From contig CAJXUN010000022.1 of NCBI GenBank assembly GCA_913061475.1, positions 1 through 64,000 of the forward strand: 64,000 nucleotides of DNA, written 5' to 3'. This document shows, one piece after another, positions 12,090 through 60,968 of this stretch. Numbering within the stretch: position 1 is the stretch's first letter; every line of letters begins with the position of its first letter. A program made the translations under genes and the position numbers. The DNA comes from an uncultured Colwellia sp. Lineage in GTDB: Bacteria; Pseudomonadota; Gammaproteobacteria; Enterobacterales; Alteromonadaceae. Below the pieces are notes generated by a model. It worked only from the letters and a program-made list of their open reading frames with translations. It was not told the DNA's origin and made no database searches.

Positions 12090-12200
12090 AAAGCACTCCT
12101 GTACATAAGTATTTATTTTACTTACACGTGTTATTTATAAGTGATATTTAATGTGATGTTAAGCGCCATCAGTTGTTAATTAACGTTGGCTTTTTGAGAA

Positions 12201-12228
12201 AAAATAGCGCTAATTAAAGCGCTATTTT
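12201..12228 (-). terminator. Rho-independent terminator after the repeat lipoprotein gene
   Basis: The stem AAAATAGCGC / GCGCTATTTT (10 bp) with an 8-base loop is followed on the minus strand by a T run. It lies 23 bases after the stop of the leftward lipoprotein gene. Confidence 0.8.
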
Positions 12229-12251
12229 TATTCCGTATTAACAAGTAAGGG

Positions 12252-14513: not shown

Positions 14514-14571
14514 TATTATAATCCTACTATTTTTTTGGTAAAAGTGTTCGCTGCTATTTGGTCTGTCTTCA

Positions 14572-14604
14572 ATACTAATTTGTATAGCCACTTTGTCAAC
14601 CAAT
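14572..14604 (-). promoter_or_regulatory. Promoter/operator of the repeat lipoprotein gene
   Basis: Minus strand: ATTGGTTGACAA (14593-14604) contains the -35 TTGACA, with a candidate -10 TAGTAT (14572-14577) 16 bases on. The same 12-mer overlaps the -35 of the TonB receptor promoter at 17008-17019, and TTTGGTTGACCAA occurs before the second PL7 lyase. A second half-site, AACCGAAC, lies just upstream. This fits a repressor overlapping the -35. Confidence 0.6.
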
Positions 14605-14686
14605 ATGTTCGGTTGTAGCTAATTTAATCAGTTTTAATTCAATAAATAGCCAAAAAATCCCTCCAAGTTTTGGTTGTTTTATCATC

Positions 14687-15217
14687 TTATTTCACCGTTA
14701 ACTTTATTGAATCCATGCTTTCTCTTGCTAGTGCAAGCCATTTGTTTTTGTACTTCTTATCGGTTGTGGTGAAGGAAATAAAAGTTAACTTGCCATCAAC
14801 CGGAAGTGCATAAGTAAGGTTGAATTGGTATTTACCAATAGATTTAATTTCGTATTCGAATACCGCAACTTTAGTGCCTAATCGGCTATAAACTTTGTCT
14901 TTTTTCCAACGAGCTTTGTCACTTGATTTACGTAACATATTAGAGAGAGATTTATGAATTTTATTCATACTCTTCTTATCTGCAGGGGTTGGATATTGCG
15001 TAAAAGTAAAGCTTACACTTTGATCTTTATTGCTAAATGCAAAAGCAGGTGGGATTTTTTGCTTGCCATAGCGCTTGTTTAAAGCCGACTCGGATAATGT
15101 TTTGAACTCTGTTGACAGCTCAATGACCAAGCTGTCATCAAAAAAATGTTGGCTATTAGTTTTCGCAGCTTGACTAGTAAAACTGAGCAAAAAAAGTAAA
15201 AAGCATAGTTCTTTCAT
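14687..15217 (-). CDS. Small secreted protein of the alginate locus
   Basis: A 176-residue protein with a Sec signal (LCFLLFLLSFTSQA|AKT). I recognise no family. The mature part is Lys-rich and looks like an alpha/beta domain of about 150 residues; it ends with a helix (WLALARESMDSIKLTV). It resembles small exported proteins that accompany other genes, with no catalytic motif visible. Its start lies 3 bases after the PL7-CBM lyase stop, so the two are co-transcribed, and a role in alginate handling is inferred from that alone. Confidence 0.65.
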   Translation of the reverse strand: MKELCFLLFLLSFTSQAAKTNSQHFFDDSLVIELSTEFKTLSESALNKRYGKQKIPPAFAFSNKDQSVSFTFTQYPTPADKKSMNKIHKSLSNMLRKSSDKARWKKDKVYSRLGTKVAVFEYEIKSIGKYQFNLTYALPVDGKLTFISFTTTDKKYKNKWLALARESMDSIKLTVK

Positions 15218-15219
15218 GG

Positions 15220-16635
15220 TTAATTTCTTATTTTATTGGTTGAGTGTGAATAGCCGCGATGGCTATTATCGATATGGTAGAATGTTGCTTGCACATAATC
15301 ATGGGCGTCACCTGAGTTATTCTGGTTATAAACTCCGGCTTTAAAATACATATATTGGCTTCCTTCATCATATCCGCTTTGTGTCATGTCAACGGTTTGT
15401 ATAAATTCACTGCCATCTGATTTTATAATCGTCACGGTAAGCGCGTGACCTACAACCGATATCGAATAGCTAAATTTCTCATTCAATGCTATACCGTCAG
15501 TGGGGTTGCTGGCACTATTATCACGACTGCCAATAATCTCGTAATAAACATCATCACCACCTAGCGATTCATGCGCTAGGTAAATAGATCCTTTTGAATT
15601 ATCTGGAAGTTTTCGATAATAAACTCGCACCGGTTCATCATCATTTGCATGGATTTGTCCAATAATAACGCGGCCTATTTGGTAATCTTCCCCAGTACTA
15701 GTTACGCTATTAATAGCCAGTTCTGCGTTGAGCTCACCATCTACACCGCCGGCATTGTCAAGGTCTGCTTGCGGTGCCGTAGAAAATACCCAGTTATTTT
15801 TGTTTACGCCTTGAGTGTTATAACTTGTGTCTCCTCGGCGTAACATTTCACGTAGCTCTGAGCGCACGTATTTAGTATTGGTCGACGTACGATAGCCAGA
15901 AACTGATGTGCTAAATATTACTCCGCCATCTTTTGATAAAGAGAAGAAACGTGGGTCAAAATAACCATTGGCGAGGTCGGTTTCTTTAATGCTATCTGAT
16001 TTGCCATTATTGTCTTCGTCGGTAGGTACGCTTAAATACCAGTCGACCAATTCGAGGCTGTGACTAATATCTTGTTGGCAACCTAATGCGTTAATTTCTA
16101 AAATATTACTTGGTTCAGAAACGTCATTACCCGCCAGTTCTAGCTTTAAATACAGCGCCGTTGTAGCGGCTAGCTCGTCGAGTTTGACCACGTCAGGAAC
16201 GCTCGTGTTTTTTTCGCTTTGCCCGGTCGTATTGAGTAATTGCCAGTTTTCTTTGTCTTTAGAGGCATAAACATTAAAAAGATGCACATTGGCTAAATTT
16301 TGCCAAGTGATAACCATTTGTTTAAGTAGTGCTGGTTCAGAAAGCTCTACTATAAGGTTACTCATGGTTTGCGCGGCTTGCCAACTTGATACGTTGGTTT
16401 TGATACCATCAAAAAGCACCGGTAAATTTACCTTCGCTACCTCATTATAAATTGATGTGATTTGTAGTGGATAGCTGACATTACAGCTAATGTCTTCGAT
16501 AACAACAGGCGGTGCAGTTTGGTTTTCATTTTGCTTTGCTACCTCTTGCGCTGCAGTGTTACTTGCAGGGCTACCACCACAGCTTGTCAAGCCAAATAAA
16601 GTGATAAAAGTTAAAAAAATCATTTGTTTCTGCAT
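15220..16635 (-). CDS. Alginate lyase, PL7 family with N-terminal F5/8-type (CBM32-like) domain, lipoprotein
   Basis: A 471-residue lipoprotein (signal MQKQMIFLTFITLFGLTSC, lipidated Cys19). Residues about 50-186 form a discoidin/CBM32-like beta-sandwich (DGIKTNVSSWQAAQ … LYLKLELAG … INALGC) for carbohydrate binding. Residues 195-455 are the PL7 lyase with RSELREM (258-264), QIH (327-329) and YFKAGVYNQ (430-438). ATG 16635 is chosen because it begins the signal and follows GGGAT; an upstream ATG (16650) is possible. It is transcribed leftward with the small secreted protein gene, divergently from the TonB receptor, with locus boxes in between. Confidence 0.9.
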   Translation of the reverse strand: MQKQMIFLTFITLFGLTSCGGSPASNTAAQEVAKQNENQTAPPVVIEDISCNVSYPLQITSIYNEVAKVNLPVLFDGIKTNVSSWQAAQTMSNLIVELSEPALLKQMVITWQNLANVHLFNVYASKDKENWQLLNTTGQSEKNTSVPDVVKLDELAATTALYLKLELAGNDVSEPSNILEINALGCQQDISHSLELVDWYLSVPTDEDNNGKSDSIKETDLANGYFDPRFFSLSKDGGVIFSTSVSGYRTSTNTKYVRSELREMLRRGDTSYNTQGVNKNNWVFSTAPQADLDNAGGVDGELNAELAINSVTSTGEDYQIGRVIIGQIHANDDEPVRVYYRKLPDNSKGSIYLAHESLGGDDVYYEIIGSRDNSASNPTDGIALNEKFSYSISVVGHALTVTIIKSDGSEFIQTVDMTQSGYDEGSQYMYFKAGVYNQNNSGDAHDYVQATFYHIDNSHRGYSHSTNKIRN

Positions 16636-16749
16636 AGTTATCCCAACCATCTAGGTGAGTTTTATTATCTCAAAATTGCTTATTAACCGGTGCTATTTTG
16701 CTTGTTGTTAATGTAAAAAGGCGCATCGCATTAAATACTCTATTAAGGT

Positions 16750-17084: not shown

Positions 17085-20000
17085 ATGGCTACTCTCAACA
17101 AGTTAAATAAAATTAGCTGCGTAGTGCGCAAACAGGTCAGCTACCCTCAACAATTTTTGTGTGCATCAACGTTACTGACTTTACTTGCATTTCCTGCGAC
17201 CGCAGCAGAAGAAGAAAGTGAAAAGAAAGTAGATGCTGACATTGAAGTCATTGAAGTTAGTGGCGGTTTACGGCGCACCATGACCCGTTCATTAAACGAG
17301 AAAAAGAACAGCACAGCTATTGTTGATGCAATAGCTGCGGCAGACTTTGGTGATTTGCCTGGTTTGTCATTATCTGATGTTATTGAGAATATTTCTGGGG
17401 CGTCTGGTCACCGTTTAAAGGGTAGCCAAAACGAAATATCTATCCGTGGCTTGGGCTCATACTGGGGTTATTCAACGTTTAATGGCCGAACTATTACTAA
17501 TGCCGGGCCAGGTCGTGCGGTAAACTTCAAAAAATTCCCTTCTGAACTTGTCGATAAAGTAGTTATTTATAAGTCGCAACAAGCCGACTTAGTTGAAGGC
17601 GGCACATCAGGCACTATCGATGTTAACTCGCTGCGCGCTGTTGACTATGGCCAAGCACAAACAACGGTTGAAGCTACCGGTATTTATAACGAGTACTATG
17701 ATGATGTAGATGGCGACACATCACCTTGGGGCAAAAAATTCGTTATTTCAACGGTTCAACAATGGGAAACCGATAACCTTGGAGATATGGGGTTTACCTT
17801 TGGCCTTAACCATTCTGATTCATCAAACCCCGAAGAAAACTACGGTGGCAGTTCACAAATGGCGGTATGTGCACTTCGCGGTGCTGATGGTTCAAACTTA
17901 ATTGGTGGTAGTAATTGTGCGACCGGCCAGCAAGGTGTGAGTTCAGGACGCGTAGGGCGGGAGCCTGAAATAGGTATCGACACTGACTTAGCCGACTTTG
18001 ATCAAAGTAGTATTTTCTATGTACCAAACGATGCATATTGGCGAACAGGTGAAGATGAAGATGTTCGTACCGGTGCAGTGTTTACTTTTCAGTGGATACC
18101 TAGAGATGATTTAGAAATTAATATCGATTATGAATATTCAGATTTAGAATATACTGAAAAACGTATGGAATTAGCCTTAGATTCACGTTTAGATGACTTA
18201 GCTGACCATATTATTTCTGACGATCACACGCTACTTTATGCAACCGGTGAAGCACGCCCGACGTTGCAAGGTGAAAACCGTAACCAAGTTGATGAATATC
18301 GCGGCGGCGGCATAGAAATTGAATTTACACCGACAGAAAAATTATCGCTCGCACTCGATCTATCATACTCCGAATCGTATCGATATCGCTTACGTCAACG
18401 AACTAAGTTTCGTTCAACTGAACGTTATAACTATGCCCTAGATTTTCGAGGCCGTAATGTACCAACATTAACTTGGTTAGATGAAAACCGCTTAGGCGCT
18501 GACGATGCAGGGTTTGTTGCAGCAGAAGTGTTTGACGCCAGTGACATGGGTAATTTTGTTAATGACGACCATGCTTATGTAGAATATCGTCGCACGCATG
18601 AAGAACGTAACGATGATATTTTTGCGATAAATTTTGACGGAGAATATCAATTAGATAACGACTACTTTTCAGGTATTAAAGCCGGTATTCGTTATTCAAA
18701 AGAGCACCTACTTGATTATGTTACTAACGACGTATCTTTGGTTATTGCCGATGGCTCGCAAAGAAATGGTTCAAGCGATAATGAAGATAACAATTGGGAT
18801 GAACTCAACCCAGAAGCTAATTCAGCATTAATTAATGGCATTATAGATAGTTGTCAAAACGGTCATTCAAACAATATTCAATTTACCGAAGAGCCGGGCA
18901 GTGGTGGTGACGCTACCCGATACGCTACTTATGATCACAAGTGTTTTATCGGACAAGTCTTAGGCCAATTACCAGGCGCTACCGGTACCGATTTTTATGA
19001 CATAGGCGAGCGAGAAGACGGCAGAGATGGTGGTGACCGTGATGTTACTGAAACCATTACTGCTGCTTACGTTATGGCCAACATCGATGCGGAAATCGGC
19101 GGCATGCCGGTGTACGGTAACATCGGTGTTCGAGTGGTAAAAACTGAAACTGAATCTAGAGGTTGGGGTGACAAAGTCTACATTACTACCGATGAAGAAA
19201 CCGGTACTTTTAGCTCAGAAATAAACCCTACAGGTGAAATCGAAAGAGTTAATTTAGATTCAGAATATACCGAAGTACTACCTAGCTTGAATTTAACATT
19301 TCATGTAACTGATGAATTTTATGTTCGAACAGCTGCGTACCGTTCAATGTCACGTTTCCAGCTAAATGCGATGTCAGCTGGTGTGAGTTACGAAACCTGT
19401 GAAAACGAAGACGATACTATTTGTGACCCTGCAACTAATACGGATTATTCAGCAGTTATTCGTGGTGGTGAAGCAAACGGTAATCACCTTGCACCATACA
19501 CCGCAAATAACTATGACCTATCTTTCGAATACTATCCTTCTGAAGATGCCGCAGTGACCTTAGCGCTTTATCATAAGTCTTTTACCGGTGGTTACGAAAC
19601 GCTTACTGAGCAACGTGATATCACGGTTAATTTAGACGGTGTTGATACAACTTACGCAAATGTTAGTCATTTAGTTAAGCAAACTTCTGACGACAACGCG
19701 ATTATCAGAGGTGTTGAAGTTACCGCTCAAAAGCATTTTGTTGAGTTACCAGAACCCTTTAATGGCTTAGGTGCTAAATTTGCTTGGAACTATGCAGATT
19801 CTAACTTTGTTACTGCAGAGCCTGCTAGTCCGGGTATTGTTGCTGACGCTAACTTATTTGGTTTTTCGAAAAATGTCGCGTCAGCGTCAGTATATTGGGA
19901 AGGTGACAAAACAGCGATTCGTTTACTCTGGAAATATCGTTCTAAATATTTACAACCTAACAGTTTGCCATTCCCGGATCGCTCACACCGTTATGTGCAA

Positions 20001-20180
20001 GACTCACTGTACTTAAACATGTCAGCTAAATACCAAGTTAGCTCGAGTGTCAGTATTTTCCTGAAAGGCCTTAATTTGACCAATGAAGCGCAGGTTTATA
20101 CCCGAGGTAACGATACCACTATTGCTGATTATTCCCGCTCAGGTACTAAATGGGAGTTTGGTGTAAAGGCTAAGTTCTAG
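17085..20180 (+). CDS. TonB-dependent outer-membrane receptor (alginate oligosaccharide uptake)
   Basis: A 1031-residue receptor. A signal peptide ends near residue 41 (PATAA|EEE), followed by a short TonB-box-like stretch (DIEVIEVSGG), the plug domain (DFGDLPGLSLSDVIENISGASG … ISIRGLGSYWGYSTFNGR … GGTSGTIDV) and a long beta-barrel ending in an aromatic residue (WEFGVKAKF). The type is the large proteobacterial class seen in polysaccharide loci. Position between PL7 lyases and the dehydrogenase, and the shared operator, suggest it imports alginate oligomers with TonB-ExbBD energy. Two Cys pairs (CALRGADGSNLIGGSNC; CENEDDTIC) may form disulfide-closed extracellular loops. Substrate is inferred from context. 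Confidence 0.9.
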   Translation: MATLNKLNKISCVVRKQVSYPQQFLCASTLLTLLAFPATAAEEESEKKVDADIEVIEVSGGLRRTMTRSLNEKKNSTAIVDAIAAADFGDLPGLSLSDVIENISGASGHRLKGSQNEISIRGLGSYWGYSTFNGRTITNAGPGRAVNFKKFPSELVDKVVIYKSQQADLVEGGTSGTIDVNSLRAVDYGQAQTTVEATGIYNEYYDDVDGDTSPWGKKFVISTVQQWETDNLGDMGFTFGLNHSDSSNPEENYGGSSQMAVCALRGADGSNLIGGSNCATGQQGVSSGRVGREPEIGIDTDLADFDQSSIFYVPNDAYWRTGEDEDVRTGAVFTFQWIPRDDLEINIDYEYSDLEYTEKRMELALDSRLDDLADHIISDDHTLLYATGEARPTLQGENRNQVDEYRGGGIEIEFTPTEKLSLALDLSYSESYRYRLRQRTKFRSTERYNYALDFRGRNVPTLTWLDENRLGADDAGFVAAEVFDASDMGNFVNDDHAYVEYRRTHEERNDDIFAINFDGEYQLDNDYFSGIKAGIRYSKEHLLDYVTNDVSLVIADGSQRNGSSDNEDNNWDELNPEANSALINGIIDSCQNGHSNNIQFTEEPGSGGDATRYATYDHKCFIGQVLGQLPGATGTDFYDIGEREDGRDGGDRDVTETITAAYVMANIDAEIGGMPVYGNIGVRVVKTETESRGWGDKVYITTDEETGTFSSEINPTGEIERVNLDSEYTEVLPSLNLTFHVTDEFYVRTAAYRSMSRFQLNAMSAGVSYETCENEDDTICDPATNTDYSAVIRGGEANGNHLAPYTANNYDLSFEYYPSEDAAVTLALYHKSFTGGYETLTEQRDITVNLDGVDTTYANVSHLVKQTSDDNAIIRGVEVTAQKHFVELPEPFNGLGAKFAWNYADSNFVTAEPASPGIVADANLFGFSKNVASASVYWEGDKTAIRLLWKYRSKYLQPNSLPFPDRSHRYVQDSLYLNMSAKYQVSSSVSIFLKGLNLTNEAQVYTRGNDTTIADYSRSGTKWEFGVKAKF

Positions 20181-32278: not shown

Positions 32279-33907
32279 ATGAAAACGATTAAATATAGTC
32301 TTTCAGCACTTGGTTTAGCTATTGGTATGGCAGCTACTGGTTTTAGTATGACAGTATCAGCAGCAGAGCCAACGCTATCAAAAGCAGACTTTGAAAAAGC
32401 ACAGTTACATTACTTTCAGCGTTGTGCTGGTTGTCATGGTGTTTTACGTAAAGGTGCGACCGGTAAAAACCTTGAGCCAGAAAACACCTTAAAAAAAGGT
32501 CAAACGCGTTTAGAGAAAATTATTGCTTTAGGCACAGAAGGCGGCATGAATAACTTTGATGACTTGTTCAGTGAGCAAGAAATCAGTAACTTGGCGACAT
32601 TTATTCAAATGACTCCGCCAGTACCACCAGAAATGTCTCTAGAGCAAATGCGTTCTTACACTAAAGAATATATTGCGCCAAAAGACTACCCAACTAAACC
32701 TATGCACGGGCTAAATTGGAAAAATTTCTTTGTGGTTATCGAACGTGACGCAGGAACTGCGGCAATTATTGATGGCGATACGAAAAAAATCATCACACAT
32801 ATCGACACTGGCTATGCGGTTCATGTAATTAAAGGTACTGAACATCATAAAGTTGATCATGCGAAAGATGTAGGTCGCTTTTGGTACACCATTGGTCGTG
32901 ACGGTAAAGTTAATAAAATCGATTTATGGCAAACACCAGATAAAATGCTAGTTGCTGAAACTAAAATGGCTTACGACGCGCGTGACATAGCTGTTTCAGG
33001 TGATGGTAAGTACGTTATTGCCGGCGGTTACTGGCCTGCGCATTTCGTTATTATGGATGCCGAAACGTTAAACCCACTGAAAGTGGTTTCAACACGTGGT
33101 TACAACACGAAAGGTGAATTCATTAACGAAGCACGTGTAGCGGCAATTTATACTGCGCCAAACACTTCTTCATTTATCGTTGCGGTGAAAGAAACCGGTC
33201 AAATGTTACAAGTTGATTATAACGACTTAGATAACTTAACCATTACCAGCATTGCTTCTGCAGAATTCTTGCATGATGGATTCTTTGACCCAACAGGGCG
33301 TTACTTCCAAATTGCGGCTAACGCGTCAAATGCTATGGTGGTGGTTGATACGAAAGAACGCGCATTAGAAAAAATCATCAAAGTTGACAGCTTACCTCAT
33401 CCAGGTCCAGGTGCTAACTGGATTGATGAAGAGTGTGGCCCAGTGGGCGGCACAACGCATTTAGGTGTTGGGCTAGTATCTGTTTGGGGTAATGATCCGA
33501 TTGGTCATCCAGACAACGCGTGGAAACTTTGTTATGAAGTGGAAACTGATGGTGCTGGTGTATTCATCCGTACGCATGAAACTTCACCATACGTTTGGGC
33601 TGATCAGCTGAAACATCCTGAGCCAGAAGTACAACAATCTGTACAAGTTTTTGATAAGAAAACTCACGAAATCGTTAAAACTATCCGTGTAACAACAGAG
33701 CCGGGTAAAGCGGCACTGCACATGGAATTCAACGACGATGGCACAGAGGTTTGGGTTTCAGTGTGGAACCGTAAAGATGCGAAAAACCCAACCGGTGAAA
33801 TCGTGGTTTATGATGCGAAAACCCTTAAAGAGAAAACACGTATCAAAGGCTTAACTACACCAACAGGTAAGTTCAACGTATTTAACCGTATGAACCATAA
33901 AACTTAG
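32279..33907 (+). CDS. nirS: Cytochrome cd1 nitrite reductase
   Basis: A 542-residue periplasmic enzyme that reduces nitrite to NO. A Sec signal ends near residue 28 (VSA|AEP). The haem c domain has RCAGCHGVLRKGATGK (CAGCH 49-53). The eight-bladed d1 propeller has the proximal His182 (DTGYAVH) and both catalytic histidines, His374 (LPHPGPG) and His394 (TTHLGVG). Compared with Pseudomonas NirS, the region after residue 380 differs (ECGPVGG, LCYEVETDGAG), so it is a divergent clade. GGAG precedes the ATG. No haem d1 biosynthesis genes are in the window. A terminator follows at 34042. Confidence 0.9.
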   Translation: MKTIKYSLSALGLAIGMAATGFSMTVSAAEPTLSKADFEKAQLHYFQRCAGCHGVLRKGATGKNLEPENTLKKGQTRLEKIIALGTEGGMNNFDDLFSEQEISNLATFIQMTPPVPPEMSLEQMRSYTKEYIAPKDYPTKPMHGLNWKNFFVVIERDAGTAAIIDGDTKKIITHIDTGYAVHVIKGTEHHKVDHAKDVGRFWYTIGRDGKVNKIDLWQTPDKMLVAETKMAYDARDIAVSGDGKYVIAGGYWPAHFVIMDAETLNPLKVVSTRGYNTKGEFINEARVAAIYTAPNTSSFIVAVKETGQMLQVDYNDLDNLTITSIASAEFLHDGFFDPTGRYFQIAANASNAMVVVDTKERALEKIIKVDSLPHPGPGANWIDEECGPVGGTTHLGVGLVSVWGNDPIGHPDNAWKLCYEVETDGAGVFIRTHETSPYVWADQLKHPEPEVQQSVQVFDKKTHEIVKTIRVTTEPGKAALHMEFNDDGTEVWVSVWNRKDAKNPTGEIVVYDAKTLKEKTRIKGLTTPTGKFNVFNRMNHKT

Positions 33908-33916
33908 ATAACGGCT

Positions 33917-34008
33917 CTACTTGTTGCTGTATCGTCTAATTTAGGCGTCAAGAGTGCGCGTCGACTCCTTACTCTTTCCGTTAAATAAAGCGATACAGCT
34001 TAAAGTAG
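33917..34008 (+). repeat. Long inverted repeat in the nirS 3' region
   Basis: CTACTTGTTGCTGTATCG (33917-33934) and CGATACAGCTTAAAGTAG (33991-34008) pair over 18 positions except for three central bases. The 56-base interior is AT/GC mixed and may fold further. It is an mRNA 3' structure or unidentified element ahead of the terminator. Confidence 0.5.
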
Positions 34009-34041
34009 AACAGTTATTAGGTAGCTAGTTTTACCCGTTAA

Positions 34042-34067
34042 GGCATGGCTAATGCCGTGCCCTTTTT
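34042..34067 (+). terminator. Terminator after nirS
   Basis: GGCATGGC (34042-34049) pairs with GCCGTGCC (34054-34061; one G-T pair) around TAAT and is followed by CTTTTTATTTT. It separates nirS from the downstream cytochrome gene, which therefore needs its own promoter within 34068-34253. Confidence 0.75.
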
Positions 34068-34253
34068 ATTTTCATTTTAAATGATTATTAGTAGTGGAAA
34101 TAGAAAGGGTTGTAACCGTGTTTATACACACGTTACTACGCCTTATAAGCATTGTGACTTCCTTGCTAAGATTAATCGGGAAGGCAGTGAATAATAATTT
34201 CCCTCAAGCTTGACTGTTCAAGGGAAGAGAGCTGAATTCATCAAGAGTCAATT

Positions 34254-36047
34254 ATGGTAAATAACACAGTTAGCAAACCCAGTTTTTGGAATCGTCGACT
34301 GGTCCTTGGTACAACCGTAGCAGGAGCGGTGATCTTCTTTATCGTGGGTATTATTTTTTGGGGTGGCTTTAACACCGCAATGGAAGCAACCAACACCACT
34401 GAATTTTGTATCGGTTGTCATGAAATGGAAGACAACGTGTACCAAGAATACAAACCCACTATACATTATTCTAATAGAACTGGCGTCAGAGCAGGTTGTC
34501 CTGATTGTCATGTACCAAGACCATGGATCCACAAAGTGGTGCGAAAAATACAAGCATCAAAAGAAGTCTTCTCTTGGTTAACCGGTAAATTAGATACCAA
34601 AGAAAAATTCAATGAACATCGCTTTACTCTTGCTAAAAGCGTTTGGGGTGCGATGAAAGATACAGATTCACGTGAATGTCGTAACTGTCATAACTTTGAA
34701 TCAATGAACCCAGAGTTTCAAAAACCGCGGGCACGTAAGCAGCATTTAAATGCCTTTGAAACTGGGCAAACCTGTATTGATTGCCATAAGGGAATTGCTC
34801 ATCATGGCGTGAGAGATAAATTAACCGATGAAGAGCTTGAAGTACTCGAAGCGCCGAATCCAGAATTTATTCGTGAAGTGCCACAACTTTATCTCGACGG
34901 TTTAGCGCGCGTAGAAGCCAAAGAAGCGGCGGAAAAAGCACAGTTAAAAGCTGACGCAGAAGTTGAAAAAGCCAAAGTACAAGCACAAATTGAGCAGGCG
35001 GTTGCGGATGCAACAAGTAATATGACTGTTGCTCCAAAAGCAGCGAGCAATGCCGCGAATGATAATACTGCGACGAGTGCTAGTAACATTAATGTTGATT
35101 GGAGCAAAGCTAATACCACAGACATTAGTGTGTTTTACCCAGGAACAGCATCAATAGAGTGGATTTTAGGTCGAAACCATGGCGGCAAACGTGCTTTCAC
35201 GAAGGGCGATCGTTGCATTGAATGCCACGGTGAAGAAATTGCCGATATAGGCAACAATATTGCTTCAGGTGAAAGTGAGAAAATTGAAGACCCAGCGTTA
35301 ATCCCAGGCAAGCGTGGTAGCTTCGATGTCACCATTAATGCCGCACATGATGCAGAAAATCTTTACTTGAAGTTTAGCTGGCCGGAAACCGACCACATGC
35401 CCGCACCATTTGTTGACGGTGGTAAAATGGACCCTGCTAACTCAATGAAACTTGCGTTTATGTTAGCCACTGATGAAGTTGAATACGCTGATCGTGCAGG
35501 CTGCTGGGGCACATGTCATGCTGATGTAAATGGTATGCCATTTGTACCAGAAAATGACGTGCTAATGGGCTCCGACTTAGCCAAACGCTTAGATTTTAAT
35601 AACGGACTAACCAAATACATTACTGAGTCTCGTACTGATCTTGAACTTAAAGGTCGAGGCGGTAAAGCGTTAGGTGGTTGGGATAAATTGAAAGCTGAAG
35701 GTGAAATACAAGCAGCGGCTGACGCTAATAAGTTTATGGATATAGTGCGCTATAAAGCGGGCGAGGGCATCATTGAAGATGGTTATATCTTAGCGGAACG
35801 TCAAATGCACGGAGGTCAAGGCGGTGAAGTAAGCGCTGTGCTTGAAAATGGCACTTGGACAGTAATGGTTAAACGTAAGCTTAAATCTGATAAAACAGGT
35901 GATGTTAGCATCGACGCTGGCAGCATCTATAACTTCGGTTTTGCTATTCATGATGACTATACCAGTGGTCGTTATCACCATGTTTCATTTGGTTATAAGC
36001 TCGCACTCGACAATACTGAAGCGGAAATTAATGCGAAAAAACTGTAG
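34254..36047 (+). CDS. NapC/NirT tetrahaem cytochrome fused to an ethylbenzene-dehydrogenase-type haem domain
   Basis: A 597-residue quinol-oxidising electron-transfer protein. One N-terminal membrane anchor (about 17-39) precedes the NapC/NirT domain with four CXXCH sites (52, 82, 142, 174). An Ala/Lys/Glu-rich, probably coiled linker (about 210-285) follows. A fifth CXXCH (321-325) leads into a C-terminal EB_dh-like haem-binding domain (about 350-590) with an unusual CX3CH motif (GCWGTCH, 417-422). It probably passes electrons from the quinol pool to NirS in the periplasm, the fused domain replacing a separate carrier. That role is inferred from position beside nirS. A strong terminator follows. 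Confidence 0.88.
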   Translation: MVNNTVSKPSFWNRRLVLGTTVAGAVIFFIVGIIFWGGFNTAMEATNTTEFCIGCHEMEDNVYQEYKPTIHYSNRTGVRAGCPDCHVPRPWIHKVVRKIQASKEVFSWLTGKLDTKEKFNEHRFTLAKSVWGAMKDTDSRECRNCHNFESMNPEFQKPRARKQHLNAFETGQTCIDCHKGIAHHGVRDKLTDEELEVLEAPNPEFIREVPQLYLDGLARVEAKEAAEKAQLKADAEVEKAKVQAQIEQAVADATSNMTVAPKAASNAANDNTATSASNINVDWSKANTTDISVFYPGTASIEWILGRNHGGKRAFTKGDRCIECHGEEIADIGNNIASGESEKIEDPALIPGKRGSFDVTINAAHDAENLYLKFSWPETDHMPAPFVDGGKMDPANSMKLAFMLATDEVEYADRAGCWGTCHADVNGMPFVPENDVLMGSDLAKRLDFNNGLTKYITESRTDLELKGRGGKALGGWDKLKAEGEIQAAADANKFMDIVRYKAGEGIIEDGYILAERQMHGGQGGEVSAVLENGTWTVMVKRKLKSDKTGDVSIDAGSIYNFGFAIHDDYTSGRYHHVSFGYKLALDNTEAEINAKKL

Positions 36048-54699: not shown

Positions 54700-55078
54700 C
54701 AGTGAACTCTTATTGTTATTAAGTATTCAAATAGGGAATTAAATTTTTAAACCCCATATTTAGTTCTGCTAAGTGCTAACTCTATTCAGTAATGAAAATC
54801 AACAAGCTTTAGAGGTGTTTTTAATGACAGCAGTTAACTTAACTTTATGCATATTACATCAGCGAGCAAATATCTGTATTTATTGCATACGTATTCACCT
54901 GAAGTATTTATTCAACCGTTAAGTTCATTATTGGCAGGCATGCGGTGTGAAATTTAAATCATTAAAAAATACTTTCTTACAAAATCTAACACTCCTACGT
55001 ATAAAGGTAACAGTTTTTAAAAACTTAAGCCGCAGATTCAAATGATGTTTATCAATAAAATACCGCTAAATTATATTA
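54700..55078. other. Divergent control region between MFS transporter and ACP operon
   Basis: No gene. It holds the sugar-type operator (54884-54897). The ACP side is AT-rich, with no clear -35/-10 pair I would defend. Confidence 0.5.
54884..54897. promoter_or_regulatory. CATACGTAT-type operator upstream of the MFS transporter
   Basis: TGCATACGTATTCA matches the extended O2 operator TGCATACGTATGTA at 12 of 14 positions, 185 bases upstream of the transporter start. It could also affect the divergent ACP operon, 182 bases to its right. Confidence 0.6.
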
Positions 55079-55348
55079 ATGGACTACACCATGAATACGG
55101 TAGCAAAATTACAAAACATATTAAGCCAAGTGATCAACATTCCATCTGAATCTATTTTCCTCAAAATGCCACTTATCGGTGAATATGCTGAGTTAGACTC
55201 AATGGGGATTATGACCTTACTGATGGAAATTGAGTCAGAATTTTCAGTTGATATAAATGATATAGATTTATCGATGGAAACATTTGCAAGCTTTGATAGC
55301 CTGCAACGTTCGGTGGAATCTGCTATCAACCTAAGGTTGACAGCTTAG
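55079..55348 (+). CDS. Acyl carrier protein
   Basis: An 89-residue four-helix carrier with the 4'-phosphopantetheine attachment Ser41 in ELDSMGIM, followed by the acidic helix MEIESEFSVDINDIDL. It is divergent from fatty-acid-synthesis AcpP and is of the type found beside AMP-ligases in biosynthetic clusters. Ribosome sites are weak for both ATG 55079 and ATG 55091. It is the first gene of a five-gene operon and overlaps the next by one base (TAGTG). It probably carries the substrate activated by the ligase at 57990. Confidence 0.9.
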   Translation: MDYTMNTVAKLQNILSQVINIPSESIFLKMPLIGEYAELDSMGIMTLLMEIESEFSVDINDIDLSMETFASFDSLQRSVESAINLRLTA

Positions 55349-56187
55349 TGACCATGAAAAACTCACTCGCCAATATGCTGATTTATTTAATCATTTCTTT
55401 TTTTAAATTATTTAAACGTCATCAGCGACAAAAAATGGCTAAGTTTATTGCTAGAAAAATTTTACGTCATGCAAAAAAAACTAAAAGCCGCGCAATGAGC
55501 AATATCTCGTTAGCTTTGCCAACCTTATCGGCTATCGAGGTTGAAGCGTTAGCGCTTGAGTCTTATGAAAATATTGTCTGTGGTATTTTTGAGTGTTTTT
55601 GGCTTGATGAAGTAGAAATTGATATCGAATGTGATGAAGCCACGTTGGAATTACTTCATAACGAAAAAGGCGCAGCAGTTGCTACTATGCACATGAGTTG
55701 CTACGAAATCGCGCCAATCATTATCGAGCGATTAGTGGGGAATGCCACCACTATGTCTAAAATACCGGCTTTTATAACATCAGCGAGTGATATTTATAAA
55801 AAATCGAATATTAAAGTGATTAATTCCAATGCACCTCATCCTTTTATCGAGCTATTGCGTGCGACGAAAGAAAATAATGTTATTTGCCTACACACTGATC
55901 ACTTTTCAACGAATGTACCAGTAACCTTTTTTGGTCGAAAAACCAGTGCCCCGAGCGGTATTGCTATGGTGTCGGCTTATCAAAAAGTGCCCTTACTTAT
56001 TTGTTATGCGACATTGCAAGCAAACGGTCGATATAAAGCGGTATTAGAAACGGTTACTGAAGTCCCCGTTGAAAATAATGAATTGGCTATTACACAGGCG
56101 ATAGGCTCGGTATATCAACGTTTTGAAGAAATAATTAAAATCCACCCAGAACAATGGTATTGGTCATATAACCGTTGGCGTAGTTAA
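55348..56187 (+). CDS. LpxL/HtrB-like lysophospholipid acyltransferase family protein
   Basis: A 279-residue membrane-associated acyltransferase. A hydrophobic N-terminal helix (about 8-20) is followed by a basic segment and the LPLAT signature His115-x4-Glu120 (MHMSCYE). LHTDHFSTNVPVTFFGRKTSAPSG (about 190-215) matches the conserved block of lipid A secondary acyltransferases. It is shorter than LpxL (about 306). In lipid A synthesis, relatives transfer acyl groups from acyl-ACP; here the adjacent ACP suggests an acyl transfer to another acceptor. Start is GTG overlapping the ACP stop; ATG 55354 is an alternative. Confidence 0.88.
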   Translation: MTMKNSLANMLIYLIISFFKLFKRHQRQKMAKFIARKILRHAKKTKSRAMSNISLALPTLSAIEVEALALESYENIVCGIFECFWLDEVEIDIECDEATLELLHNEKGAAVATMHMSCYEIAPIIIERLVGNATTMSKIPAFITSASDIYKKSNIKVINSNAPHPFIELLRATKENNVICLHTDHFSTNVPVTFFGRKTSAPSGIAMVSAYQKVPLLICYATLQANGRYKAVLETVTEVPVENNELAITQAIGSVYQRFEEIIKIHPEQWYWSYNRWRS

Positions 56188-56191
56188 TCTT

Positions 56192-57982
56192 ATGGATATA
56201 AAAATGAATGCTCAACCGATAGTGGACACTGAAGAAGATCAATCTTCACATATAAAACCTTGGCCACGATTATTAGGTTATTTTGGTGCACACAAACTGA
56301 AACTATTGGTCGCGCTGTTAGCGTTATGCCTTTTTAGTATTGTTGATGCTGGCATGATCTATTTTGTTAAACCATTAATTGATGATGGCTTAGCGCTATC
56401 TAATGCTGAAACTCTTAAAACAGGGGCATTAGTTGTGGTGCTTATTTTTTTCTTTCGTGGTATCGCAGGCTTTGTTTATAACTATATATTAGCCTATGTC
56501 AGTAGTTATATTACTCATGATATTCGTCAACAAGCCTTTGAAAAACTACAGCGCTTACCTATGTATTATTTTGACGAATGTAACCGAGGGACATTAATCT
56601 CAAAACTTATTTATGACACTGAGCAAATTTCTAAAGCCACCTCAACTGCCTTAGTTACTGTATTTAGAGAAACGCTTATTGTGCTTGTTTTACTCGGGAT
56701 GATGTTTTATCAAAGTTGGCAGTTGTCATTGATTTTCGTCATTATTGGGCCGCTAATCGCCATTATTATTGCCAAAGTGACTAAGCGTTTTAAGCAGGTC
56801 AGTGTTGCGCTGCAAAATAGTATGGGTGATATCACTAAAGTGGCGGACCAGTCGTTAAGTAATCATCAAGAGGTACTGGCGTATAATATGTCGGAGAAGT
56901 TGTCGCAACAGTTTTCACAAGCGAACAATAAAAATCGACGACAGATAATGAAATTAGCAACCGCTAGCGCGCTGAGTAACCCAACAATACAGCTGATTGC
57001 ATCATTTTCAATTTCTGCGGTGTTGTTGCTTGCAAGTAATGAAAACATTATCAAAGAACTGACACCAGGCACATTTACCATGGTGCTATTCGCCATTGGT
57101 TCACTGCTGCGCCCTCTGAAACAATTGACGATGGTTAATCAACAATTACAAAGCGGTATTACAGCAGCTAACAGTGTTTTTGAGTTATTAGATAAAACAG
57201 AAGAAAACGATGGTGGTAGCAAATCGTTAACTGGAGATAGCTTCAGTATTAAATTTGAGCAGCTGAACTTTTCGTATCGCAAAAGCACGGCTAATATTTT
57301 AAACAATATTTCAGCATTTATACCAGCGAAAAGTTCAATTGCGCTTGTTGGGGCCACAGGAAGCGGTAAATCTACCTTGGCAAATTTGCTACTCCGACTT
57401 TATGACGCACCTGAGTCTTCAGTTTATATCGACAATACCCCAATAGAGCAGTATTCATTAGCATCATTACGCTCGAATATTGCCTTAGTTTCACAACAAA
57501 TCGTCCTATTTGATGACAGTTTAGCGAACAATATTCTCTTTGGTTGTAAACGAAATGTTAGTCGTGCTGAGTTAGAAGATATCGCCGAACAAGCTAATGT
57601 TATGTCATTTGCATCGTTATTGCCGTTAGGTCTAGATTCTGCCATTGGCGAAAATGGCTGCTTATTGTCGGGTGGACAACGCCAGCGTATTGCAATCGCT
57701 CGCGCCATGCTAAAAGATGCGCCGATTGTCATTTTAGATGAAGCGACCTCAGCATTGGACAATAAGTCAGAGTTTTTAATACAACAGGCATTCGCTCGCT
57801 TAGGTGAAAATAAAACCATGTTGATTATCGCGCACCGATTATCGACCATCGAGAATGCTGATCAGATTATCGTTTTAGATAAAGGTCATATAGTCGAACA
57901 AGGCCATCACAGCGCATTACTTTTAAATCGCAGTCATTATTATCAAATGCATCAACAACAATTTACTCAAGAAGAAAACTAG
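56192..57982 (+). CDS. MsbA-like ABC exporter (lipid flippase type)
   Basis: A 596-residue homodimeric ABC half-transporter. Six transmembrane helices (about 35-320) come first, then a nucleotide-binding domain with Walker A GATGSGKST (387-395), signature LSGGQRQR near 490, Walker B VILDEATSALD and H-loop IIAHRLST. It is closely like MsbA, which flips lipid A across the inner membrane. In an operon with an ACP and an LpxL-like acyltransferase, it probably exports the lipidated product of the cluster; it could instead be a second MsbA. Confidence 0.92.
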   Translation: MDIKMNAQPIVDTEEDQSSHIKPWPRLLGYFGAHKLKLLVALLALCLFSIVDAGMIYFVKPLIDDGLALSNAETLKTGALVVVLIFFFRGIAGFVYNYILAYVSSYITHDIRQQAFEKLQRLPMYYFDECNRGTLISKLIYDTEQISKATSTALVTVFRETLIVLVLLGMMFYQSWQLSLIFVIIGPLIAIIIAKVTKRFKQVSVALQNSMGDITKVADQSLSNHQEVLAYNMSEKLSQQFSQANNKNRRQIMKLATASALSNPTIQLIASFSISAVLLLASNENIIKELTPGTFTMVLFAIGSLLRPLKQLTMVNQQLQSGITAANSVFELLDKTEENDGGSKSLTGDSFSIKFEQLNFSYRKSTANILNNISAFIPAKSSIALVGATGSGKSTLANLLLRLYDAPESSVYIDNTPIEQYSLASLRSNIALVSQQIVLFDDSLANNILFGCKRNVSRAELEDIAEQANVMSFASLLPLGLDSAIGENGCLLSGGQRQRIAIARAMLKDAPIVILDEATSALDNKSEFLIQQAFARLGENKTMLIIAHRLSTIENADQIIVLDKGHIVEQGHHSALLLNRSHYYQMHQQQFTQEEN

Positions 57983-57989
57983 AGCCGCT

Positions 57990-59747
57990 ATGTTATTACA
58001 TGAATTATTAGAAAAATCCTCGGCATGTCAGCCGAATAAAAAAGCCTTAGGTCGAGAAAATCAATGGATGACATACCAAGAGTTACAAATAGCTTTTGAA
58101 ACTGCGGCTAAAGCCCTGCAGCAATTGAACATTTGTAAGAATGATCGAGTGGCAATATATTTGCCTAAGGTAGAAGAGGCGGTTATAAGCTATTTTTCAG
58201 TCAGTAAAGTTGGCGGAATTTTTATCCCGGTTAATCCCGCACTAAAAGCGCGACAAGTTGCTCATATTCTAAATGATAGTACTGCAAAGGTACTGATCAC
58301 CAACACGGCACGTTTAAGGCAAATGATAACGCAGTCGTTGACTGAGCAAGCTAACGCAAAAAGCTTAGCGAAGCTTGAGCAGATTATCCTTATCGATGCT
58401 ACTGAGGACGATGACTTATGTGACGATGAATTTTCTGTCAATAAAGGCCATGGTGAATCAGTCAATATCATCAGCTGGCCTGGTTTTATGACACTTGGTA
58501 ATAATACTTTAGTTTCAAGCACTTCAGATACGACTAGTCGCTCAGAGTATATCGGCAATGATATTATTGATAGTGATATCGCCGCTATCTTCTATACCTC
58601 CGGTAGTACGGGTAATGCAAAAGGTGTGGTATTAAGTCATCGTAATCTTGTGATGGGAGCAAAAAGTGTTGCGCAATACTTACCTTGTAAAAGCACAGAT
58701 GTTATGGCGGCCATTCAACCCTTTAGTTTTGATTATGGTTTTAGTCAACTGACCATTTGTTTTTTAATTGGTGCTAGTTGTTATATGGATGAATATTTGT
58801 TTGAAAAAGATTTATTTGAGACTATAAAAAGACAAAAAATCACCACCTTAGCGCTAGTGCCACCGCTTTGGATAAAGTTGGCGCAAGGGTGTTGGCCGGC
58901 AGAAGTTGGCAAGAACATTCGCTACTTTTGTAATACTGGCGGCGCAATGCCAAGGTCGACACTATCAAAATTAAGAAACTATATGCCTAATGCCAAACCG
59001 TATTTAATGTATGGACTTACCGAGGCATTTCGTTCTTGTTATTTGCCGCCCGAACAACTTGATATTCGACCTGAATCATTTGGCAAAGCTATTCCTAATG
59101 CACAAATTACTGTTATTAATGAGCAAGGCGATGAATGTCGGCCCCATGAGCCTGGAGAACTTGTTCACAGGGGGGTACTTGTTAGCCAAGGTTACTGGAA
59201 TGATGTCGAGCAAACCAAACAACGTTTTAAGCCAGCTGCGAATCTTTTGCCACAAGTACCTCTGACTGAAATGGCGGTTTGGTCGGGCGATGTGGTAAAA
59301 AAAGATGAGCAAGGTTTTTTATATTTCATTGGTAGAAAAGATGATTTGATCAAAACCTCAGGTTATCGCTTAAGCCCAGATGAGGTAGAGAATGTGCTTT
59401 ATTTGCTTGATGATATCAGTGAGGCGATTGTGATTGGCGTTCCTCATCCTGTTTTAGGGCAAGCGCTTGTGGCAATTATTGTTGCTAAATCTGCAGAGTT
59501 AACCGAAAAACGTGTATTAAGACACTGCTTAGCCTCATTGCCGAACTACATGCTGCCAAAGCACATTGCTTTTGTGGATTCATTACCTAGAAATGCCAAC
59601 AATAAATTTGAAAGAAATCATTGGAAAGCAGTATACAAAAATTTATTTGCCCGCTTAATCAATGAAAATATAAAAACTAATGATTTAGTCGAATCAACAG
59701 AATCAGTAAAGTCAGCAGAAGTGGGTATAAAAAATGAAAACGCATGA
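57990..59747 (+). CDS. AMP-forming acyl/aminoacyl ligase, exosortase A-associated type
   Basis: A 585-residue ANL-superfamily adenylating enzyme. It has FYTSGSTGNAKG (ATP loop), PFSFDYGFSQLT, NTGGAMPRSTL, YLMYGLTEAFRS and the C-terminal GRKDDLIKTSGYRLSP. The ordering and wording closely match the acyl-CoA ligase family associated with exosortase A loci (TIGR03098), by memory rather than search. It would adenylate a carboxylic or amino acid and load it on the ACP or CoA. The 14-base overlap with the decarboxylase gene, and the family pairing, suggest a shared pathway. AGAG precedes the ATG. Confidence 0.88.
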   Translation: MLLHELLEKSSACQPNKKALGRENQWMTYQELQIAFETAAKALQQLNICKNDRVAIYLPKVEEAVISYFSVSKVGGIFIPVNPALKARQVAHILNDSTAKVLITNTARLRQMITQSLTEQANAKSLAKLEQIILIDATEDDDLCDDEFSVNKGHGESVNIISWPGFMTLGNNTLVSSTSDTTSRSEYIGNDIIDSDIAAIFYTSGSTGNAKGVVLSHRNLVMGAKSVAQYLPCKSTDVMAAIQPFSFDYGFSQLTICFLIGASCYMDEYLFEKDLFETIKRQKITTLALVPPLWIKLAQGCWPAEVGKNIRYFCNTGGAMPRSTLSKLRNYMPNAKPYLMYGLTEAFRSCYLPPEQLDIRPESFGKAIPNAQITVINEQGDECRPHEPGELVHRGVLVSQGYWNDVEQTKQRFKPAANLLPQVPLTEMAVWSGDVVKKDEQGFLYFIGRKDDLIKTSGYRLSPDEVENVLYLLDDISEAIVIGVPHPVLGQALVAIIVAKSAELTEKRVLRHCLASLPNYMLPKHIAFVDSLPRNANNKFERNHWKAVYKNLFARLINENIKTNDLVESTESVKSAEVGIKNENA

Positions 59748-60957
59748 CATCCATCATCGTCTTAATGTCGAAAATAATCAGCTTATATTTGCCGGAAAGA
59801 GCGCAGAAGAAATTATTGCTATTGCTGGTGGCACACCTTGTTATGTTTATGATAAATCGCTCGTTGTTAACAGAGTTAAAGCGCTGAGATCAATGTTACC
59901 TGAAACGGTTAAAATTCACTATGCAATTAAAGCTAACCCTTACGCGCCTTTAGTCGGCCAAATGGTAAACCATGTTGATGGTTTTGATGTCGCTTCGCAT
60001 CAAGAATTAATTTTAGCGCTAGCTAGTGGCATGCCAGCAGCGAATATTAGCTTTGCCGGTCCTGGAAAATCATCTCAAGATTTAACTGCTGGCGTTGCTA
60101 GTGGTGTCATCATTAATGTTGAATCAGAGCATGAACTTAATCAAATTTATGCTATAGCTCAACAACAACAGTGTCGTGCGAATATTGCGCTGCGAGTAAA
60201 TCCAAGTTTTGAATTGAAAAATTCAGGTATGTCGATGGCGGGCGGCTCAAAGCCGTTCGGTATAGATGCCGAAAATATTACTGCGATGCTAAAAAAATTA
60301 GACGTTGATAAAGTGAATATTAAAGGTTTACATATATTTACCGGTTCACAAAACTTAAATGCTGAAGCGTTAATGCAAGCACAATCTAATACTTTTGAGT
60401 TGGCTTATCAACTACTTAAAGAAACGGGTGTCGAAATAACCCACCTTAATATTGGCGGTGGCTTTGGTATTCCATATTTTCCCAATGAAAAAGCACTAGA
60501 CCTTACCGCTGTTATTGATAATTTAACGAAACTGCTTGAAAAATATCAACCTTTGCTCGGCTTTAAAGAAATACATTTGGAGTTAGGGCGTTACTTGGTT
60601 GGTGAAGCGGGTATATATTTATCCCGAGTTGTTGATAAAAAAGTTTCACGGGGTAAAACCTACCTCGTTGTTGATGGCGGTATGCATCACCATTTGGCAA
60701 ATTCGGGTAACTTTGGTCAGGTGATCCGTAAGAACTATCCTGTCGTTATGCCACAAGAGATGGGGCATAACGCACCTGAAAAAGTTAATGTGGTGGGGCC
60801 TTTATGTACGCCGTTAGATATACTAGCAAACCAGATTAATTTAGCGCCAGCTAAAATCGGCGATGTTATTGCTGTTCTGCAATCAGGGGCTTATGGCCCA
60901 ACAGCAAGTCCGCAGCTGTTTTTGAGTCAACCACAAGTAAAAGAGCTCATGTTGTAG
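59734..60957 (+). CDS. LysA-like PLP-dependent decarboxylase, exosortase A-associated type
   Basis: A 407-residue alanine-racemase-fold decarboxylase. The PLP lysine is Lys66 (YAIKANP); GGGFGIPYF, ELGRYLVGEAG and GPLCTPLD carry the phosphate-binding and catalytic-Cys regions, and SGAYGPTASP ends the active site. It resembles diaminopimelate decarboxylase but is closest, by memory, to the family paired with exosortase A loci (TIGR03099). Its substrate is unknown: a free amino acid, or one tethered to the ACP. It is the last gene of the operon and converges on def with 11 bases between. Confidence 0.9.
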   Translation: MKTHDIHHRLNVENNQLIFAGKSAEEIIAIAGGTPCYVYDKSLVVNRVKALRSMLPETVKIHYAIKANPYAPLVGQMVNHVDGFDVASHQELILALASGMPAANISFAGPGKSSQDLTAGVASGVIINVESEHELNQIYAIAQQQQCRANIALRVNPSFELKNSGMSMAGGSKPFGIDAENITAMLKKLDVDKVNIKGLHIFTGSQNLNAEALMQAQSNTFELAYQLLKETGVEITHLNIGGGFGIPYFPNEKALDLTAVIDNLTKLLEKYQPLLGFKEIHLELGRYLVGEAGIYLSRVVDKKVSRGKTYLVVDGGMHHHLANSGNFGQVIRKNYPVVMPQEMGHNAPEKVNVVGPLCTPLDILANQINLAPAKIGDVIAVLQSGAYGPTASPQLFLSQPQVKELML

Positions 60958-60968
60958 TTAATTTGAGT

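What the first reader, a model, noticed from the sequence alone, without database searches (positions are those of the whole stretch)
55079..60957. Five-gene operon coupling an exosortase A-type ligase/decarboxylase pair to an ACP, an LpxL-like acyltransferase and an MsbA-like flippase
All five genes overlap or lie within 8 bases of each other. The ligase and decarboxylase resemble two families usually found together in exosortase A/PEP-CTERM exopolysaccharide loci, yet no exosortase, PEP-CTERM protein or EPS glycosyltransferase is in the window. The added ACP, HX4E acyltransferase and lipid flippase suggest a stand-alone route: acid loaded on ACP, decarboxylated, N- or O-acylated, and flipped outward as a small aminolipid or similar product. 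I know no described pathway with this exact set.
Basis: partly seen in the sequence, partly recalled or inferred. Interest (0 to 1): 0.75.

Follow-up and report, generated by a model that had tools for sequence, protein, structure and literature searches.

The report
Amino-acid tagging cassette for membrane lipids
A five-gene cassette looks like a stand-alone machine that loads an amino acid on a carrier protein, trims it, fixes it to an envelope lipid and exports that lipid; it resembles the cholera bacterium's glycine tagging of lipid A, but with new parts.

Summary
In detail: five complete genes (carrier protein, LpxL-like transferase, MsbA-like exporter, TIGR03098 ligase, TIGR03099 decarboxylase) at 55079-60957. 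The set recurs in seven other genomes. In six same-genus genomes the two flanking genes are adjacent, so the five genes behave as one inserted unit. The genome has another LpxL-type gene and another MsbA beside lpxK; its only exosortase is on another contig, and three of seven cassette genomes tested have none. Ligase, carrier and decarboxylase match the logic of VinN/VinL/VinO and BtrI/BtrK: an acidic amino acid loaded through its side-chain carboxyl, then decarboxylated on the carrier (beta-alanyl- or GABA-carrier). In Colwellia and a neighbouring genus the same transferase core sits with an AlmE-like ligase and no decarboxylase. Best reading: the transferase works like AlmG, moving the charged amino acid (not a fatty acid) onto a lipid A-type lipid, exported by a dedicated MsbA paralogue. 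Product, acceptor and export are inferred, not shown. New variant of a known kind.

The parts
55079..55348 (+). Carrier protein (ACP), 89 aa; presumed phosphopantetheine serine S41 in ELDSM (55199-55201)
   Evidence: PF00550 30.3 bits; DSM motif in the 8 carriers of the non-Colwellia loci aligned
55348..56187 (+). LpxL/LPLAT-superfamily transferase (ACT), proposed aminoacyl-carrier:lipid transferase; HX4E at residues 115-120 (55690-55707)
   Evidence: PF03279 87.4 bits, below the cut-off of every LpxL/LpxM-type model listed; predicted fold matches LpxM 5kn7, E 1.9e-14; HX4[E/D] in 25 of 25 family rows, window included
56192..57982 (+). MsbA paralogue (MsbA2), proposed exporter of the modified lipid
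   Evidence: TIGR02203 627 > 602; block copies form one clade apart from housekeeping MsbA, SH-aLRT 100
57990..59747 (+). TIGR03098 AMP-forming ligase, proposed amino acid:carrier ligase; D248 (58731-58733), Y249, T316, R348 (59031-59033)
   Evidence: TIGR03098 648 > 592; VinN-like pocket residues by my mapping
59734..60957 (+). TIGR03099 PLP decarboxylase, proposed aminoacyl-carrier decarboxylase; GPLCTPLD at 60796-60819; presumed PLP lysine K66 (59929-59931, motif recalled)
   Evidence: TIGR03099 563 > 478; best PDB relatives BtrK 7ru7/2j66; GPLCTP.D shared with BtrK
54700..60968 (.). Inserted segment: in six same-genus genomes the flanking MFS and deformylase-like genes lie 171-206 bp apart; here 6269 bp holding the five genes

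Best explanation
The cassette is a stand-alone lipid aminoacylation system. Step 1: the ligase adenylates an acidic amino acid (most likely L-Asp, else L-Glu) through its side-chain carboxyl and loads it on the dedicated carrier. Step 2: the BtrK/VinO-like decarboxylase removes the free alpha-carboxyl on the carrier, leaving beta-alanyl-S-carrier (or GABA-S-carrier). Step 3: the LpxL-like transferase moves this omega-aminoacyl group, as AlmG moves glycine, onto a hydroxyl of a lipid A-type acceptor at the inner face of the inner membrane. Step 4: the MsbA paralogue flips the tagged lipid. The product carries an added primary amine, which lowers the surface's negative charge. Shown: gene set, families, phylogeny, alternative charging arms, insertion. 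Inferred from homologues: steps 1 and 2. Inferred more weakly: donor use in step 3, acceptor, export and purpose.
For: Decarboxylase: best PDB relatives are BtrK (E 6.8e-70, 8.4e-70), ahead of the best DAP decarboxylase (1.3e-46); GPLCTP.D shared with BtrK and GPLCTPLD in 50 of 52 relatives, while the genome's own LysA (521 bits > 298) has GPICETGD. Ligase: Asp at the amino-recognising site (D248), also in the Colwellia and Streptomyces ligases aligned, but I, V and C in three fatty-acyl-type ligases of the same genome (typed by family); Y249, T316 and R348 resemble the VinN features F231, S299 and K330/R331 (PMC11253843, passages); R348 in 52 of 52 relatives. Carrier beside the transferase in 22 of 25 genomes that have it. 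In 12 of these 25 the ligase/decarboxylase arm is replaced by another ligase; the one searched (L082) has 4OXI as best stand-alone PDB match, which is V. cholerae AlmE, glycine, and shares Asp-Leu at the place of AlmE D247-L248. Transferase: LPLAT fold, LpxM best. Exporter: MsbA2 one clade of 11 rows. Block ligases and decarboxylases each on one side of a branch (93 and 100). Two-component genes next to the block in L057, L058, L059 and L064, as CarRS controls almE (PMC12930378, passages).
Against: No biochemistry. AlmG's own sequence could not be fetched, so kinship to AlmG was not tested beyond the shared superfamily. The transferase's PDB relatives (LpxM, PatA) move fatty acids. By whole-sequence score the ligase's best PDB chains are NRPS modules, and NCBIfam names it acyl-CoA ligase. 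VinN's shortened beta13-beta14 loop was not evident in my alignment. LCTP.D is not unique to BtrK: 6knh, named probable diaminopimelate decarboxylase, has it too, and another decarboxylase of this genome has GPLCTSLD. Parts are not obligate partners: G062 and G096 have carrier and transferase without exporter, G125 the transferase with neither found, G160 the transferase alone, and G079 no full exporter ORF. The regulators score below all their models' cut-offs shown, and none lies beside the block in this window.
Confidence: 0.5

Rival explanations
1. One reading: the decarboxylated amino compound made on the carrier is acylated by the LpxL-like enzyme with a fatty acid, giving a small aminolipid that the MsbA-like exporter flips.
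For: PF03279 enzymes and the PDB relatives LpxM/PatA use fatty acyl donors; a fatty acid hydroxylase (PF04116; weakly OlsE-like, 77.5 bits against a cut-off of 475) lies next to the exporter in Glaciecola.
Against: The transferase has its own carrier beside it in 22 of 25 genomes, and the alternative charging arm is AlmE-like; the exporter is a close MsbA paralogue.
Confidence: 0.2
2. The block decorates an exopolysaccharide of the genome's distant exosortase locus in trans.
For: The genome has one XrtA-like exosortase on contig C5 and one TIGR03098 ligase over the cut-off; in S. meliloti the pair lies among glycosyltransferases.
Against: Three of seven cassette genomes have no exosortase match, against 34 of 34 tested genomes with the non-cassette ligase that do; a lipid transferase and an MsbA paralogue have no evident role there.
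Confidence: 0.07
3. A late acyltransferase system that adds an unusual fatty acyl chain to lipid A: the ligase loads a fatty acid on the carrier; the decarboxylase makes a separate amine.
For: LpxL-like fold, MsbA-like exporter.
Against: Asp at the amino-recognising site of the ligase, which three fatty-acyl-type ligases of the same genome lack; a BtrK-type decarboxylase would have no part in it.
Confidence: 0.1
4. A secreted small natural product (beta-alanyl or GABA conjugate) exported by the ABC protein.
For: VinN/VinO and BtrK, the closest characterised logic, belong to antibiotic pathways (PMC11284099; PMC7857480).
Against: No further biosynthetic genes in the inserted unit; the exporter is MsbA-type.
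Confidence: 0.05

Closest known systems
AlmEFG lipid A glycylation, Vibrio cholerae
   Same: Adenylating enzyme, carrier protein and LPLAT-superfamily transferase; a variant of the present cassette in Colwellia has an AlmE-like ligase
   Different: Here the ligase is of TIGR03098 type, a decarboxylase is added, and an MsbA paralogue is linked; acceptor unproven; AlmG sequence not compared
VinN/VinL/VinO (vicenistatin) and BtrI/BtrK (butirosin)
   Same: Acidic amino acid on a stand-alone carrier, decarboxylated there by a PLP enzyme; BtrK is the closest solved relative, and the ligase pocket resembles VinN's
   Different: Those feed antibiotics; here the trio is joined to a lipid transferase and exporter. 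BtrJ is of another ligase family (recalled)
Exosortase A-associated ligase/decarboxylase pair (TIGR03098/TIGR03099)
   Same: Both scores above the curated cut-offs; a carrier gene found near the pair in 22 of 45 non-cassette loci as well, though many stretches reach only 1.5 kb
   Different: No exosortase needed; block versions form their own group in both trees
MsbA and LpxL/LpxM
   Same: Fold and family
   Different: Second copies; MsbA2 is a separate clade, and the copy beside lpxK is another one; the transferase scores below every LpxL/LpxM-type cut-off listed

Membership tests
TIGR03098/TIGR03099 pair | Scores over curated cut-offs | tested here: met
   648 > 592 and 563 > 478
TIGR03098/TIGR03099 pair | Exosortase A system association | tested here: not met
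   Other contig here; no exosortase match in 3 of 7 cassette genomes
BtrK/VinO-type aminoacyl-carrier decarboxylase | Closest solved relative BtrK; CTP in place of the CE of LysA | tested here: met
   the CTP motif alone is not exclusive (6knh has it)
BtrK/VinO-type aminoacyl-carrier decarboxylase | Acts on the aminoacyl-carrier thioester | not testable with these tools
   needs purified proteins
AlmEFG system | AlmE-type glycine adenylating enzyme | tested here: not met
   Window ligase is TIGR03098 type; 4OXI is not among its hits to E 1e-30. Only the Colwellia variant ligase is AlmE-like
AlmEFG system | Dedicated carrier protein with serine | tested here: met
   S41
AlmEFG system | LPLAT-superfamily transferase of AlmG type | tested here: inconclusive
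AlmEFG system | Aminoacyl transfer to lipid A | not testable with these tools
   needs lipid A mass spectrometry
LpxL/LpxM late acyltransferase | Equivalog or subfamily scores over cut-off | tested here: not met
   TIGR02207 33 versus 297.8; best such model 76 versus 273
LpxL/LpxM late acyltransferase | HX4D/E catalytic motif | tested here: met
   HMSCYE; 25 of 25 family rows
MsbA | TIGR02203 over cut-off | tested here: met
   627 > 602
MsbA | Housekeeping orthologue (beside lpxK, canonical clade) | tested here: not met
   The copy beside lpxK (TIGR00682 286 > 92) is L009 on C26; block copies form another clade

The most novel reading that the evidence does not exclude
A previously undescribed family of lipid-modifying cassettes adds beta-alanine (or GABA), made by decarboxylation on a carrier protein, to lipid A-type lipids and exports them through a dedicated MsbA paralogue; the charging arm is interchangeable with an AlmE-like arm. 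By the same logic the exosortase A-associated ligase/decarboxylase pair, whose models are only hypothetical equivalogs, is an omega-aminoacyl-carrier synthase in polysaccharide loci too.
Probability: 0.45. Interest if true: 0.75.

Novelty: new variant of a known kind. Interest (0 to 1): 0.62.

Why it matters
It gives a testable chemistry for two annotated but functionally unassigned families (TIGR03098/TIGR03099), suggests that lipid aminoacylation of the Alm type has a wider family with interchangeable charging enzymes, and offers an MsbA paralogue that may be specialised for a modified lipid, useful for asking how MsbA reads its cargo.

Tried and rejected
Transferase in viral contigs: none; in phages: none; in plasmids two distant hits at about 24%. 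A sample of 369 class-level genomes gave, besides the own one, a single weak match of 86 bits. The three loci at 21-22% identity (L086-L088) showed no other block gene by tblastn and served as outgroup only. Block as part of an exosortase locus outside the window: rejected. Transferase and exporter as sole LpxL and MsbA: rejected. GC content does not set the insert apart (0.37-0.40, like its flanks). Promoter-like sites were fewer than in shuffles (14 against a mean of 20.8), so no promoter is claimed. The printed PDB alignments showed only gramicidin synthase chains, so the VinN comparison rests on a review's residue list and my mapping to GrsA numbering (recalled). Relatives of the Colwellia ligase in plasmids: 568 records, not followed. 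S. meliloti MsbA2 papers: listing only, not followed. Regions H85 and H77 came without annotation and were not used.

Mistakes found and mended: the query labelled EXO was the neighbouring polysaccharide deacetylase; one search repeated it with the exosortase (no hit within the fetched regions), and settled it by family search. In the first transferase tree one outgroup row (L088) was read from the wrong strand; rebuilt the tree with fixed strands and also checked that each row of the MsbA tree resembles the block's MsbA2.

Limits of counts: of 69 genomes with TIGR03098 at E<=1e-150, neighbours were read in 51 (own, 30 short loci, 20 regions); 18 were not read. 34 of the 44 read as non-cassette were tested for exosortase. 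D248 matched my pattern in 50 of 52 relatives; two block loci escaped the pattern. The two decarboxylases without GPLCTPLD were not inspected. Trees are 'quick' (SH-aLRT only), and the transferase outgroup rows are very long. Only one of the 12 AlmE-like ligases was searched in the PDB; against it the 12 are 52-100% identical.

Full report
Observation. The window holds five complete ORFs on the + strand at the stated place, with overlaps of 1 and 14 bases and gaps of 4 and 7 bases. Pfam and NCBIfam give a carrier protein, a PF03279 transferase, an ABC exporter over the MsbA cut-off, TIGR03098 and TIGR03099. The HX4E motif is real (H115, E120). The window is C22:1-64000 of a 4.28 Mb assembly in 88 contigs; the contig ends at 67,476.

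The unit. In the same genus, 13 of 16 other genomes have a close homologue of the right-hand neighbour, the deformylase-like gene. In 6 of these 13 it lies directly beside the homologue of the left-hand neighbour, the MFS gene (89.8-95.1% identity), with 171-206 bp between. Here 6269 bp separate them and hold the five genes. In the other 7 the neighbour differs: a more distant MFS (37%) in L160, a DUF3565 homologue in L161, L163, L169, L170 and L171, an unmatched gene in L162. None of 15 other same-genus genomes has the ligase at E<=1e-150, and none of 16 has the transferase at E<=1e-20. Insertion as one unit is the simplest reading; loss in the others is not excluded.

Recurrence. tblastn over 50 loci of relatives found the set in L057, L058, L059, L060, L064 and L067. 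A scan of named genomes found it in Pseudoalteromonas denitrificans (L077); Algicola sagamiensis (L079) and Glaciecola (L083, L085) have the same match figures as L067, L058 and L059 and so name them. Gene order matches the window in L060, L064, L067 and L077. In L057 and L059 the exporter lies about 2.4-2.6 kb away; in G140 (L058) it is on another contig. In L057 the transferase reads in two pieces.

Not the housekeeping copies. The genome has another MsbA over the cut-off (745 bits, C26), next to lpxK (TIGR00682, 286 > 92), and three other PF03279 members, one with 289 bits. Of 11 genomes with the transferase-exporter core, all 11 have the block MsbA2 over the cut-off and 10 also a canonical copy over it; in G284 the remaining strong match is a fragment with stops. 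MsbA2 copies form one clade of 11 rows (SH-aLRT 100), in an unresolved fork with three groups of housekeeping MsbA (rows verified).

Not an exosortase accessory. The genome's one exosortase is XrtA-like but below that model's cut-off (165.8 against 208) and on contig C5. Exosortase is matched in 4 of 7 cassette genomes, the own one included, and in 34 of 34 tested genomes with the non-cassette ligase. In those 34, the ligase lies within 60 kb of the exosortase in 16, further off on the same contig in 9, and on another contig in 9. Block ligases and block decarboxylases each fall on one side of a branch (support 93 in a tree of 53 rows, 100 in a tree of 52).

Charging chemistry. The decarboxylase is closest to BtrK in the PDB and shares GPLCTP.D with it; the genome's LysA has GPICETGD. 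A chain named probable diaminopimelate decarboxylase (6knh) also has LCTP.D, so the motif alone does not decide. BtrK decarboxylates glutamyl-BtrI to GABA-BtrI (PMC7857480, passages). In vicenistatin, VinN loads 3-methylaspartate on the carrier VinL, and VinO decarboxylates it after loading (PMC11284099, passages and section 5). In the ligase, D248 aligns with the amino-recognising Asp; two FadD-type and one acyl-CoA synthetase-type ligase of the same genome have I, V and C there. VinN differs from alpha-amino acid enzymes by F231, S299 and K330/R331 (PMC11253843, passages); by my mapping (GrsA numbering recalled) the window ligase has Y249, T316 and R348. R348 is in 52 of 52 relatives and in a Streptomyces ligase encoded near a decarboxylase and a carrier, but not in the Colwellia ligase, which has no decarboxylase beside it. 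This favours Asp loaded by its beta-carboxyl, hence beta-alanyl-carrier; Glu to GABA is the alternative.

The alternative arm. The transferase family is in 25 of 395 family genomes, 11 of 52 genera (E<=1e-20). By neighbourhood: 7 have the TIGR03098/TIGR03099 arm; 12 have a different AMP-binding ligase (23-28% identity to ours) and no decarboxylase; 5 have no ligase next door but hold a non-cassette TIGR03098 elsewhere, as do at least 5 of the 12; 1 (G160) has the transferase alone. A carrier is beside the transferase in 22 of 25 (not found in G079, G125, G160). The best stand-alone PDB match of the second ligase is 4OXI (E 4e-65, behind multi-domain NRPS chains), which is AlmE of V. cholerae, substrate glycine, LPS modification. 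AlmE loads glycine on AlmF, and AlmG moves it to lipid A (PMC12930378, passages; PMC4790380, passages). In the transferase tree the 25 family rows stand apart from 7 outgroup rows (support 91), the AlmE-like type is one clade (99), and the other types are mixed. What stays constant is transferase, carrier and mostly exporter; the source of the charged amino acid changes. That is the main reason for reading the transferase as an aminoacyl transferase.

Transferase. The model (mean pLDDT 90.7) matches LpxM (5kn7, E 1.9e-14) and PatA. It scores below the cut-off of every LpxL/LpxM-type model listed. Direct comparison with AlmG was not possible, so it is not filed as AlmG.

Print status. Searches of the held library (listings only) showed no title or abstract describing this gene set; most subscription papers are not in that library.

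Verdict. Steps 1 and 2 are well supported by homology, the transfer step fairly; acceptor lipid, export and purpose are inference. It works like AlmEFG joined to VinN/VinO logic, but a defining Alm feature (AlmE-type ligase) was tested and not met in the window, so it is called a new variant, not a member.

Noticed in passing
L020:10613-18585 (own genome C5): Divergent XrtA-like exosortase with a polysaccharide deacetylase and a TPR protein beside it; the genome's only TIGR03098 over the cut-off is the block's, on another contig.
   Followed up: partly
L057:3690-4769, L058:7089-8168, L064:3224-4309, L085:14500-15579, L151:4418-5668: A DUF418 membrane protein, in four of the five also matching the HGSNAT acetyltransferase family, recurs within a few kb of the core; role unknown.
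   Followed up: partly
L025 (own genome C10): A further decarboxylase scoring equally low with TIGR03099 and LysA models (193 and 192 bits), with GPLCTSLD.
   Followed up: no
L080, L081, L082, L084 carrier ORFs: The Colwellia carriers appear to have KSF instead of DSM around the presumed serine; the alignment placed a gap there, and Pfam does not recognise the one scanned.
   Followed up: partly
L057 and G284: In G284 the transferase reads in two pieces, and a further MsbA match has internal stops.
   Followed up: no
34 genomes: In 18 of 34 the exosortase-associated ligase lies far from, or on another contig than, the exosortase, so the association is looser than the family name suggests.
   Followed up: partly
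L118:10412-13227: S. meliloti pSymB has the ligase/decarboxylase pair among glycosyltransferases in a polysaccharide cluster.
   Followed up: no
L156:8962-12905: Streptomyces plasmid with decarboxylase, holo-ACP synthase, hotdog protein, AMP ligase and carrier in a row: the same charging trio in another phylum.
   Followed up: partly
window 11043-16650: Two PF08787 alginate lyases near a TonB-dependent receptor (17085-20180).
   Followed up: no
window 32279-36047: Cytochrome d1-type protein followed by a NapC/ethylbenzene-dehydrogenase-like protein.
   Followed up: no
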